NCBI GenBank assembly: GCA_016865865.1
Contig: VGOC01000026.1
Coordinates: 1-35,533, forward strand
DNA: 35,533 nt
Direction of reading: 5' to 3'
Source: Chloroflexota bacterium
GTDB lineage: Bacteria; Chloroflexota; Anaerolineae; Anaerolineales; UBA11858
Shown here: one piece after another, positions 6,838 through 14,141 of the stretch
How positions within the stretch are numbered: position 1 is the first letter of the stretch
Layout: each line of letters begins with the position of its first letter
The notes under the pieces: model-generated
The model's input: the letters and a program-made list of their open reading frames with translations, nothing else
Database searches by the model: none
What the model was told of the DNA's origin: nothing
Translations under genes and position numbers: made by a program

Positions 6838-7548
6838 CTAACTATTAGCCGAAGTTTCATCGGGATATGGCATAGTGTACCCTAAACCTGGGCGGGTCAC
6901 AATATATCGGGGCTCTTTTGGATGATCTTCGAGTTTTTGCCGTAAGCGAGAAATGCTCACCCAAAGCACCTCCTTGTCCTCCCGGTATGACTGCCCCCAT
7001 ACATTCTCCAACAATACTTCCGAAGTCATGATGCGGCCCTTATTTTGCACAAACTGCAAAAGCAAGCGATATTCAGTCGCCGATAGCAGCACTTCGGTAT
7101 CGCCAATATAAACTTGCGCTCGGGCAAAATCCACACGCAATTTGCCATGCGAAAAAGCTGATTGTTGGGAAGAGCTTTCGGAAAATTGCGCCCGGCGGAG
7201 TACAGCTCTCACACGAGCCAGCAATTCGGTCACAGAATAGGGCTTGACGATATAGTCATCCGCGCCAACATCCAATCCTCGGACGCGATCCCGTTCGTCG
7301 CTGAGCGCAGTGACCATGATGATCGGCACAGCCGAAAATCTACGGATGCGCTCACAGGCTTCGATGCCATCAAGATCGGGCATCATTATATCCAACAATA
7401 CTAAATCTGGACGGTTGGCGTCCACCGTATCAACTGCTTCCTGACCACCAGCAGCAGTGATGACTTTATACCCCGCGCTTACAAGGTTGGCTTCCATCAG
7501 ACGCACATAGCGAGGCTCGTCATCAACAACCAGTATTAGCGCACTCAT
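6838..7548 (-). CDS. OmpR/PhoB-family response regulator
   Basis: The 236-residue protein has an N-terminal receiver domain with acidic residues in VVDDEP, phospho-acceptor Asp at about 53 in LVLLDIMMPD, Thr in IIMVTAL and Lys in YIVKP. A C-terminal winged-helix DNA-binding domain follows, with LSATEYRLLLQFVQN and a VWGQSY/RLRQKLE region ending in RPGLGYTM. The ATG at 7548 has GAGGAGG just upstream. It follows the GAF histidine kinase, now separated from it by a 93-bp mobile element; before that insertion its start codon overlapped the kinase stop. It is the likely DNA-binding output for one or both upstream kinases. Confidence 0.93.
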   Translation of the reverse strand: MSALILVVDDEPRYVRLMEANLVSAGYKVITAAGGQEAVDTVDANRPDLVLLDIMMPDLDGIEACERIRRFSAVPIIMVTALSDERDRVRGLDVGADDYIVKPYSVTELLARVRAVLRRAQFSESSSQQSAFSHGKLRVDFARAQVYIGDTEVLLSATEYRLLLQFVQNKGRIMTSEVLLENVWGQSYREDKEVLWVSISRLRQKLEDHPKEPRYIVTRPGLGYTMPYPDETSANS

Positions 7549-7568: not shown

Positions 7569-7576
7569 AGAGATTC
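7569..7576. repeat. Left 8-bp target-site duplication of MITE 1
   Basis: AGAGATTC occurs here directly before the element and again at 7670-7677 directly after it, with no mismatch. Confidence 0.85.
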
Positions 7577-7669
7577 GTATCTTCTCAACAACTTGGGGGA
7601 AGATGGGGGGTGTGCGGGCGGCTTCGCCGCCCGCACACCCCGCCTCCCCCCTTATTATTGAGATGATAC
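7577..7669. mobile_element. 93-bp palindromic MITE, IS66-like (MITE 1)
   Basis: The whole element is a long imperfect palindrome. Terminal repeats are GTATCTTCTCAA at the left and GTATCATCTCAA at the right (reverse complement). The centre is a perfect 16-bp stem (7607-7622 with 7626-7641) closed by a 3-base loop. It is flanked by the perfect 8-bp direct repeat AGAGATTC. Ends beginning GTA and an 8-bp duplication are typical of the IS66 family, so this is probably a non-autonomous derivative mobilised in trans; it has no coding capacity. The right end encodes the last four residues and stop of the kinase gene. TIR and core are related to those of the element at 14028-14141. Confidence 0.85.
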
Positions 7670-8905
7670 AGAGATTCCCTGGCGGGGAAGATAGATGTGA
7701 ACAACCATTCCCTCACCCAGGGCAGACTCGGCCATGATTTCTCCGTCATGAGCCTGGATGATCTGGCTGCAAATATACAAACCCAGGCCCGTACCCGACA
7801 CATTTGCCCGATGTTCTGGTAAGCGATAGAAACGTTTGAAAATATCCTCCAGATGTTCCTTGGGTACGCCAGGCCCGGTATCACGAACGGTGATATGGGC
7901 GCGCTCCGCTTCCCAGTTCAATGATATCGTGACCACTGATCCAGGAGCATATTTTTCCGCATTGTTAATCAGGTTATCCAATACTTGAACAAGGCGAGCT
8001 GAATCGGCAAGGATGATTTCTGGCGATCGTTCGATATTCGACGAAATCTCTAAGTCGAAACTTCCCACCTTCACGCGCTGAACGAAAACTTCCAGCATTT
8101 TAGCCAGCAGGACTTCCTGGAAATTCATGGGGAGAGTCCCGGATTGAAGACGGGAAGAATCGAGGATATTATCAATGATTTCAGTCAGGCGATCAGATTC
8201 CTCGTCAATGATCGTCAAGAACTCCCGTCGGGTTTGCGGATCCCATTCCACATCATCGCGCAGCAACGATGTCGCATATCCTTTGATGAAACCCAGAGGG
8301 GATCGCAGCTCGTGAGAGACGGTAGAAATGAATTGTTCTTGCAAGTGGCCGAGGCGTCTTTCGGCTTCCAACGCCGCCACGCGCTCGACAAGCTGCCTGC
8401 GCTCCAGAAGCTTCTCCACATGCTCGGCAATCAACCAGGCGAAATAGATTTGTTTTTGCAGGAAGGGCGGTCCTCCGAAACGGATGAAGACCAACGCCTT
8501 GCTGATCTCATCTTTGGCCTGCAACGGCAAACCTAAAAAATCACGCTGATTCAGCCTCTCATCATGAGCGCTGTTTAGCTCGTTTTCCAGGATTTCACGC
8601 CGCATGACCATTTTGCCAGTTTGCATCACCTCGCGGGCGGTCGTCTCCCCCCAATCCATATCGGCCTCCTTGGAACGGCCACGACCGAGAGAACGGGCAT
8701 ACGTGGGGATCAGTTTTCGATCTTCCTGCCTATCGTAAAGAACAATATTGTCGAAAATAAAAGCCGGTCGAGCCAGGCGAAAGATTTCCCTAAGCGCGGT
8801 TGCTACGTCATGCTCTTGGATAATCACGCGACCAATCTGATAAAGAGATTTATACTCCTCTGGCAGCAACTGCTCAGTTTGTAAATCAATGCCGGGTTCT
8901 AGCAA
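7655..8905 (-). CDS. GAF-domain sensor histidine kinase
   Basis: The 416-residue cytoplasmic kinase has a GAF-like sensing domain (about 20-165), a short coiled coil (170-192), a HisKA domain with phospho-acceptor His at about 198 in STVSHELRSPLG, and a HATPase domain with the N box (LINNAEKYAPGS), G1 box (DTGPGVP) and G2 box (GTGLGLYI). No membrane segment is present, so it senses an internal signal or partner. TTG at 8905 is the start: AAAGGA lies 6 bases upstream and it overlaps the upstream kinase stop by 7 bases. The last residues VSSQ and the TAA come from an inserted mobile element; the ancestral tail would have been RSCEEDV. Its partner is the OmpR-type regulator downstream. Confidence 0.92.
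   Translation of the reverse strand: MLEPGIDLQTEQLLPEEYKSLYQIGRVIIQEHDVATALREIFRLARPAFIFDNIVLYDRQEDRKLIPTYARSLGRGRSKEADMDWGETTAREVMQTGKMVMRREILENELNSAHDERLNQRDFLGLPLQAKDEISKALVFIRFGGPPFLQKQIYFAWLIAEHVEKLLERRQLVERVAALEAERRLGHLQEQFISTVSHELRSPLGFIKGYATSLLRDDVEWDPQTRREFLTIIDEESDRLTEIIDNILDSSRLQSGTLPMNFQEVLLAKMLEVFVQRVKVGSFDLEISSNIERSPEIILADSARLVQVLDNLINNAEKYAPGSVVTISLNWEAERAHITVRDTGPGVPKEHLEDIFKRFYRLPEHRANVSGTGLGLYICSQIIQAHDGEIMAESALGEGMVVHIYLPRQGISVSSQ
7670..7677. repeat. Right 8-bp target-site duplication of MITE 1
   Basis: This is the second copy of AGAGATTC. It lies within the 3' coding part of the kinase gene, showing that the insertion hit the end of that gene. Confidence 0.85.
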
Positions 8906-10062
8906 GATGTATCCTTTCCTGCTATCGTCAACGCGAACTCGAAATACGAGCCTTCCCCCTCTCTGGAACGTACAACGATATCCGACCCGTGGGCTTCGAC
9001 GATCTGACGAGCCATCGCCAACCCCAGGCCGGTACCGCCATATCGCCTCGTAGAGGAACTATCGAGCTGGTGGAACGGCTCGAAAATTTCATTGATCTTC
9101 TCCTCAGCAATCCCAATTCCGGTATCATAGACATAGAGCTTTACCACAGCGCCATTGATGATTGCGCCTACCTGGACGGCGCCGCCTTCTGGTGTAAATT
9201 TAACCGCGTTATCTACCATATGCAGTAACACCCAGGGCAACATCTGTGCATCTGCCAATACCTCAGGAATACTGGGGGGGATTTTCGTTTGAAAATGGAG
9301 GCTCTTTTCATCGCAGCGATTGCGTGCCTTTTCGAGCACATCGCCCATGATTTCCAGCAAATCGAGCGGGGCCAGTTGGATATCGAGGCTGCCGCGAGAA
9401 TAGGTCGAAAACTGAATCAGATTTTCGATCAGATTTCCAAGCCGGTTTTCAGCCTTCTTCATCACCCGCACAGCATCAGCCTGCTGGGGGTTCAAATCCC
9501 CCAACGCCTGCTCTTCGAGCAATTCGATATATCCCTTCAGGTGAATCAGAGGAGTTCGCAACTCATGCGACACATTCGAGACGAAATTGGATTTGAGCTG
9601 GTTCAATTCCGCAAGCCTGTTCATGGCGTGTTCTAACTCGGCCGTACGCTCACGAACTCGCGCTTCCAACTCATCGTTTGCCCGTTGTAATGCTAATTGT
9701 AGCTGAAGGATTTGCTCCGTAACTGCCTGATCCAGGGCTTCTCTGCTGATCAAGTTCAACTCCAATAGAGCCTTTCCAATCAGTTTTGACTGCCCACCAT
9801 CGCACATTTTCTTCTGGTAGGCCAGCGCCTGGATCAAGTCATCCGGGCTTAATAATCCCCTTTTGACCAGATAATCTCCGAGACGGGGGACCAACAATTC
9901 GGGCGAGAGGCTCAAATCCGGCAGCATGCCGGTTTGCACTTCCAGCTTCTTCTCAGCCAGAATTGCGTATAGAGCCATGTTGACTCCACAATATTCGCAT
10001 GTGCTGGCATTCGAGTCGACCGGTTGATTACAGTTGGGGCAGGAGATCAGTTCTGATGTCAT
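8899..10062 (-). CDS. Histidine kinase with N-terminal zinc ribbon and MshEN-like domain
   Basis: In this 387-residue protein, residues 8-25 hold a zinc ribbon (CPNC and CEYC). Residues about 59-117 hold two consecutive helical motifs, RLGDYLVKRGLLSPDDLIQA and, after a spacer, LIGKALLELNLISREALDQA. These match the GspE-N/MshEN pattern known to bind cyclic di-GMP in secretion ATPases. A coiled coil (118-155) leads to HisKA with His at about 166 in SNVSHELRTPL, then a HATPase with DTGIGI and GGTGLGLAM. It is cytoplasmic. The ATG at 10062 has only a weak ribosome site. The gene heads the minus-strand run, which includes a second kinase, a response regulator and cpaF. Cyclic di-GMP binding is inference: the second motif lacks the usual Arg. 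Confidence 0.85.
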   Translation of the reverse strand: MTSELISCPNCNQPVDSNASTCEYCGVNMALYAILAEKKLEVQTGMLPDLSLSPELLVPRLGDYLVKRGLLSPDDLIQALAYQKKMCDGGQSKLIGKALLELNLISREALDQAVTEQILQLQLALQRANDELEARVRERTAELEHAMNRLAELNQLKSNFVSNVSHELRTPLIHLKGYIELLEEQALGDLNPQQADAVRVMKKAENRLGNLIENLIQFSTYSRGSLDIQLAPLDLLEIMGDVLEKARNRCDEKSLHFQTKIPPSIPEVLADAQMLPWVLLHMVDNAVKFTPEGGAVQVGAIINGAVVKLYVYDTGIGIAEEKINEIFEPFHQLDSSSTRRYGGTGLGLAMARQIVEAHGSDIVVRSREGEGSYFEFALTIAGKDTSC

Positions 10063-14027: not shown

Positions 14028-14141
14028 GTAACTACTCAGCCAAACGGAGAAATTCCCGAAAAAAGGGCGTGCGTGCGGGTGCTGCGCACCCCCACGCACA
14101 CCCTTTTTTCGGGTTAATCCGTTCGATGACTGAGCAGTTAC
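14028..14141. mobile_element. 114-bp palindromic MITE, IS66-like (MITE 2)
   Basis: The element is a near-complete palindrome. Left end is GTAACTACTCAGCCA; right end (reverse complement) is GTAACTGCTCAGTCA. Both arms continue inward with AACGGA, CCCGAAAAAAGGG and a GC-rich GTGCG core. It is flanked by the 8-bp direct repeat AATAATAA. GTAA ends with an 8-bp duplication match the IS66 family. No coding capacity is present, so it must depend on a transposase elsewhere. It lies in the 256-base gap between tdk and rpmE, inside the T-rich tail of the rpmE terminator. Nothing else was recognised in that gap. Confidence 0.87.

What the first reader, a model, noticed from the sequence alone, without database searches (positions are those of the whole stretch)
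7569..7677. MITE inserted between a kinase and its response regulator, supplying the kinase stop codon
A 93-bp palindrome is bounded by a perfect 8-bp duplication (AGAGATTC). Removing the element and one duplication copy, the kinase frame reads GGA ATC TCT CGA TCT TGT GAG GAG GAT GTA TGA. That TGA overlaps the ATG of the response regulator. The ancestral genes were therefore overlapping and translationally coupled. The insertion separated them by 106 bases, replaced the last seven kinase residues (RSCEEDV) with VSSQ, and put a 16-bp GC-rich hairpin in the mRNA. This may change the kinase/regulator ratio.
Basis: partly seen in the sequence, partly recalled or inferred. Interest (0 to 1): 0.8.

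Follow-up and report, generated by a model that had tools for sequence, protein, structure and literature searches.

The report
IS66-type MITE splitting kinase–regulator gene overlap
A 93-base parasitic DNA element jumped into the spot where a sensor-kinase gene and its partner regulator gene used to overlap by four bases, so the kinase now ends on a stop codon inside the element's own end; the event is real and recent, but of a known kind, and its effect on the two proteins is untested.

Summary
The finding holds up. A 93-bp palindrome (7577-7669) is flanked by a perfect 8-bp duplication (AGAGATTC) between a histidine kinase and an OmpR-type regulator, both on the minus strand. Every first-stage prediction that could be tested passed. 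About 24 copies exist in the genome, most with 8-bp duplications. All six congeneric genomes have the same gene pair without the element. Five of the six keep the ATGA stop/start overlap, in gapless register with the reconstructed empty site. A same-genus genome carries a 1801-bp IS with an intact IS66-family transposase (549 aa) whose one end is identical to the MITE end over 22 nt. Relatives in Nostoc and Allochromatium plasmids have matching ends and perfect 8-bp duplications. The nearest described group is ISBst12 of IS66. The kinase tail changed from RSCEEDV to VSSQ. This is an intrinsic property of the terminal repeat: three other copies close ORFs with VSS(Q/R)-stop. The mRNA gains a 40-bp hairpin, but the regulator keeps its own Shine-Dalgarno site. 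Altered kinase/regulator ratio remains inference. New member of a known kind (bacterial MITE). Unexplained: the GC-rich hairpin core also sits inside MITEs with unrelated ends in this genus.

The parts
7577..7669 (.). MITE, 93 bp, near-palindromic, ends GTATC..GATAC
   Evidence: family of about 24 copies; this copy has 3 aligned-column differences from the 92-bp consensus
7569..7576 (.). target-site duplication copy 1, AGAGATTC
7670..7677 (.). target-site duplication copy 2, AGAGATTC
7607..7641 (.). GC-rich core hairpin GGGGTGTGCGGGCGGC-TTC-GCCGCCCGCACACCCC (16-bp stem); arms shared with MITEs of unrelated ends in the genus
7655..7669 (-). element end GTATCATCTCAATAA read in frame by the kinase as V-S-S-Q-stop
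7655..8905 (-). histidine kinase (weak GAF match, HisKA, HATPase_c), 416 aa, last 4 residues from the MITE
6838..7548 (-). OmpR-type response regulator (Response_reg + Trans_reg_C), 236 aa
7553..7558 (-). Shine-Dalgarno AGGAGG of the regulator, on the regulator side of the insertion and therefore retained
   Evidence: sequence; comparison
8899..10062 (-). second histidine kinase (HisKA, HATPase_c) overlapping the start of the first: operon HK-HK-RR

Best explanation
This is a recent insertion of a non-autonomous element (MITE), mobilised in trans by a single-ORF transposase of the IS66 family (ISBst12-like, ends GTA[T/A]CnnCTCAAnAA, 8-bp target duplication). It landed in the last codons of a histidine kinase that overlapped its response regulator by ATGA (shown). 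The kinase lost its last seven poorly conserved residues and now ends V-S-S-Q on a TAA built into the element's end (shown). The most likely consequence is loss of the tight stop/start translational coupling: ribosomes now terminate 106 nt upstream of the regulator start, at the foot of a 40-bp mRNA hairpin, and the regulator relies on its own retained Shine-Dalgarno (inferred). The kinase itself is probably fully active, because the change lies outside the ATPase domain (inferred). A modest change in kinase/regulator ratio or mRNA processing is plausible but untested.
For: 8-bp duplications at most copies. Six empty orthologous junctions, five with ATGA, in gapless alignment with the reconstructed empty site. 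Intact 549-aa transposase in same-genus G003 between ends GTATCTTCTCAAAAA and GTATCTTCTCAATAACTTGGGG, the latter identical over 22 nt to the MITE end. PF03050 DDE_Tnp_IS66 E=6.5e-14, above the Pfam cut-off. Relatives on Nostoc and Allochromatium plasmids have ends of the GTATCnnCTCAnnA / GTAACTTCTCAATAA type and perfect 8-bp duplications. HATPase_c ends at residue 409 of 416, and the tail differs freely among orthologs. RNA fold.
Against: The transposase scores below the NCBIfam IS66 equivalog cut-off (107.7 vs 180 bits). The G003, G116 and G198 full-length IS copies show no 8-bp duplication. No intact mobiliser was found in the own genome. No expression data exist; predicted Shine-Dalgarno accessibility hardly changes (0.25 to 0.14 mean unpaired).
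Confidence: 0.85

Rival explanations
1. The element is neutral baggage: the insertion only swaps a dispensable tail, and the regulator's own Shine-Dalgarno gives unchanged expression.
For: Shine-Dalgarno AGGAGG retained. Kinase tail not conserved among orthologs, and G005 has already lost the ATGA overlap by itself. 9 of 22 copies lie within 35 bp of called gene 3' ends against 5.5% of bases in the window, as expected if only harmless insertions survive.
Against: A 40-bp hairpin between two coupled cistrons is seldom without any effect on RNA; Correia and ERIC elements alter mRNA processing or level (PMC10969869).
Confidence: 0.4
2. The element acts as an mRNA processing or stability device: RNase III cuts the long hairpin, separating kinase and regulator transcripts and changing their ratio.
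For: 40 base pairs, -73.4 kcal/mol. Precedents: Correia elements cut by RNase III in mtrCDE, ERIC at gene 3' ends altering transcript levels (PMC10969869), the same proposal for QMITE2 in Coxiella (PMC5896051).
Against: No RNA data; the ribosome terminating at the hairpin foot may keep it partly open.
Confidence: 0.3
3. It is a REP/BIME-type repeat or an intrinsic terminator rather than a transposon-derived MITE.
For: Palindromic, GC-rich, multicopy, near gene 3' ends.
Against: 8-bp target duplications, IS-matching ends and empty orthologous sites; no T-run terminator called at the element.
Confidence: 0.03

Closest known systems
ISBst12 group of the IS66 family (e.g. ISDge4 of Deinococcus geothermalis, PMC12898284)
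   Same: Single transposase ORF, 8-bp duplication, imperfect ends GTGACTACTCAGCA/GTAACTGCTCAGCA sharing GTnnCtnCTCA with GTATCWTCTCAAWAA; the genome's second MITE family (GTAACTACTCAGCC) matches ISDge4 ends even more closely
   Different: The mobile element here is 93 bp without ORF; the presumed mobiliser is a divergent clade (549 aa, below NCBIfam IS66 cut-off) with GTATC rather than GTAA ends
Chunjie MITE inserted in an operon of Geobacter uraniireducens (cited in PMC10969869)
   Same: Recently active MITE inserted in an operon
   Different: 235 bp, other transposon; not known to lie at a stop/start overlap
QMITE1/QMITE2 of Coxiella burnetii (PMC5896051)
   Same: Palindromic MITEs at gene 3' ends that replace C-terminal residues of the host gene
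   Different: Different ends and length; not shown to split overlapping genes of a two-component system
MITEAba12 of Acinetobacter (PMC6382973)
   Same: 113-bp MITE with stop codons in all six frames, recent movement
   Different: ISAba12-related; its 3'-end case truncated a gene by 398 aa

Membership tests
Bacterial MITE | short, no ORF, terminal inverted repeats | tested here: met
   93 bp; ends GTATCTTCTCAA / GTATCATCTCAA
Bacterial MITE | multiple copies with target-site duplications | tested here: met
   about 24 copies, most with 8-bp duplications
Bacterial MITE | empty orthologous site | tested here: met
   six congeners empty
IS66 family / ISBst12-like group (of the presumed mobiliser) | DDE transposase of PF03050 | tested here: met
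   E=6.5e-14, 52.4 bits vs cut-off 23.1; NCBIfam IS66 equivalog only 107.7 of 180 bits
IS66 family / ISBst12-like group (of the presumed mobiliser) | single ORF in a 1.4-1.9 kb element (size range from memory) | tested here: met
   1801 bp, 549-aa ORF in G003; 1756 bp in G116
IS66 family / ISBst12-like group (of the presumed mobiliser) | 8-bp target duplication | tested here: met
   MITEs and four plasmid IS relatives; but absent at the G003, G116 and G198 copies
IS66 family / ISBst12-like group (of the presumed mobiliser) | ends beginning GTAA (family consensus, from memory) | tested here: inconclusive
   GTATC here; GTAAC in Allochromatium relative L187 and in MITE L046
IS66 family / ISBst12-like group (of the presumed mobiliser) | transposase moves this MITE | not testable with these tools
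   needs a transposition assay
Intrinsic terminator | GC-rich stem followed by T-run | tested here: not met
   no terminator called at the element
Rfam-described RNA | score above gathering threshold | tested here: not met
   only sub-threshold matches, mostly hairpin microRNA models

The most novel reading that the evidence does not exclude
The MITE is one product of a modular system in this genus: a GC-rich hairpin core (GGGGTGTGCGGG...CCCGCACACCCC) is exchanged between MITEs with unrelated ends and acts on mRNA at gene junctions, while IS66-type ends carry a built-in in-frame stop that makes insertion at gene ends harmless. Together they would repeatedly uncouple overlapping gene pairs and reset protein ratios.
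Probability: 0.08. Interest if true: 0.65.

Novelty: new member of a known kind. Interest (0 to 1): 0.38.

Why it matters
It is a clean case, with empty sites, of a mobile element cutting a stop/start overlap in a two-component system, where coupling is thought to fix protein ratios. It also links a large, apparently undescribed set of MITEs in this bacterial order to an IS66-type transposase clade (no paper on IS66-derived MITEs was found), and shows that the terminal repeat itself supplies a stop codon.

Tried and rejected
A genome-contig scan with the kinase gave only distant kinases. PDB search with the transposase gave nothing. Pfam on fragments of the decayed G198 transposase gave no IS66 match. 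Rfam gave only sub-threshold hairpin models. No promoter-like site in the element region. Terminator and REP readings were rejected. IS66-type transposases elsewhere in the genus (L172-L174) have no GTATC ends; L175 has GTAACTACTAAGCC ends, a likely relative of the second MITE family. In one search the downstream query was translated in the wrong frame, so only the junction sequences read off directly for G001, G002 and G003 are used from it.

Full report
OBSERVATION. The sequence contains exactly what was described: a 93-bp near-palindrome at 7577-7669 between two copies of AGAGATTC. On the minus strand a histidine kinase (7655-8905; HisKA, HATPase_c, weak GAF match) ends with GISVSSQ-stop inside the element. 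An OmpR-type regulator (6838-7548) starts 106 bases further on.

MULTICOPY AND DUPLICATIONS. The element has about 24 copies in its own genome, a draft of 168 contigs. Twenty of the 22 near-complete copies differ from the consensus in 0-6 alignment columns; two are more diverged. Perfect or near-perfect 8-bp duplications flank most copies. A wider scan found 55 distinct insertions with GTA[AT]C-type ends and duplications with 0-2 mismatches (AT-rich in the middle positions) in this and related genomes. Five copies have the hairpin loop inverted (GAA for TTC), as can happen in palindromes.

EMPTY SITES. The regulator search of all seven genomes of the genus gave one clear ortholog in each, each with the kinase directly adjacent. 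None of the six relatives has the element. In five the kinase stop overlaps the regulator start as ATGA, and the reconstructed empty G000 site aligns with them without gaps. In G005 the kinase stops 12 nt before the ATG. The insertion is therefore derived and specific to the G000 lineage.

MOBILISER. The end motif GTATCWTCTCAAWAA occurs in 35 of 251 genomes of the order. Following it led to full-length elements. G003 (same genus) has an 1801-bp element with an intact 549-aa transposase. G116 has a 1756-bp element whose transposase is 53% identical. G198 has a decayed copy. The transposase is IS66-family by Pfam but falls below the NCBIfam cut-off. One end of the G003 IS equals the MITE end over 22 nt. 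The three genome copies lack an 8-bp duplication, but four plasmid relatives (three Nostoc, one Allochromatium) with ends of the same type (GTATCnnCTCAnnA or GTAACTTCTCAATAA) have perfect 8-bp duplications. ISDge4, of the ISBst12 group of IS66, has an 8-bp repeat and ends GTGACTACTCAGCA/GTAACTGCTCAGCA (PMC12898284). The own genome holds no intact relative of this transposase, only a PF03050 fragment. It may have been lost, or may be missing from the 94% complete assembly.

BUILT-IN STOP. In the frame where the first codon is GTA, the end GTATCWTCTCAATAA reads V-S-S-Q-stop. Four of 22 copies close an ORF of at least 150 codons this way: the kinase here, an NADH dehydrogenase subunit (L021, VSSR), a URO-D protein (L029) and a glycosyltransferase (L030). 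L030 is a second case in which the reconstructed empty site is an ATGA overlap of two genes. Its neighbours overlap in G001 and G002, and G003 has a different hairpin repeat just upstream of the downstream gene.

HOW IT PROBABLY WORKS. Shown: insertion, loss of RSCEEDV, gain of VSSQ, 106-nt gap, 40-pair predicted hairpin (-73.4 kcal/mol), retained AGGAGG before the regulator. Inferred: loss of tight termination-reinitiation coupling, unchanged kinase catalysis, and possibly altered regulator yield or mRNA processing. Predicted Shine-Dalgarno accessibility changes little, so the direction and size of any effect are unknown.

CONTEXT. Nine of 22 copies lie within 35 bp of a called gene 3' end, against 5.5% of bases in the window (p about 1e-6 with crude ORF calls). 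Purifying selection against insertions inside genes explains this sufficiently, and the same bias is reported for Coxiella QMITEs (PMC5896051).

VERDICT. A well-supported, ordinary mechanism (MITE transposition) at an interesting place. The identity is firm; the regulatory consequence is open.

Noticed in passing
window 14028-14141: Copy of a second, larger MITE family (ends GTAACTACTCAGCC / GTAACTGCTCAG, 112-117 bp, 8-bp duplication AATAATAA) with at least 40 copies in the genome; its ends match ISDge4 (ISBst12 group of IS66).
   Followed up: partly
window 7607-7641; L034-L037; L055, L130-L140 (G003); L129, L041: The hairpin core GGGGTGTGCGGG..CCCGCACACCCC occurs 43 times in G003, 21 in G000, once each in G004 and G005 and in none of the other 57 genomes searched, inside MITEs with unrelated ends (e.g. 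AGGACTTACGCAGTT, GGTGTGTTTCA); why unrelated MITEs share a core is unexplained.
   Followed up: partly
L142-L148, L039, L046, L052, L054: In other families of the order the GTATC-ended MITEs keep a palindromic core although its sequence differs (GGGTGTTTTTGGCG..., GGGGTGTTTTGGGC...), so pairing is preserved while letters change.
   Followed up: no
L030 1140-1310 (G000:C5:59649-59740): A second copy of the same MITE split another ATGA overlap (glycosyltransferase / PMT-like gene); here the downstream gene's upstream Shine-Dalgarno region was displaced.
   Followed up: partly
L123 1884-2008: A GTAACTACTCAGCC element inserted beside a GTATC element, its duplication being GTATCATC, the first 8 bases of that element: nested insertion.
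   Followed up: no
window 8899-10062: A second histidine kinase overlaps the start of the first, giving an HK-HK-RR operon.
   Followed up: no
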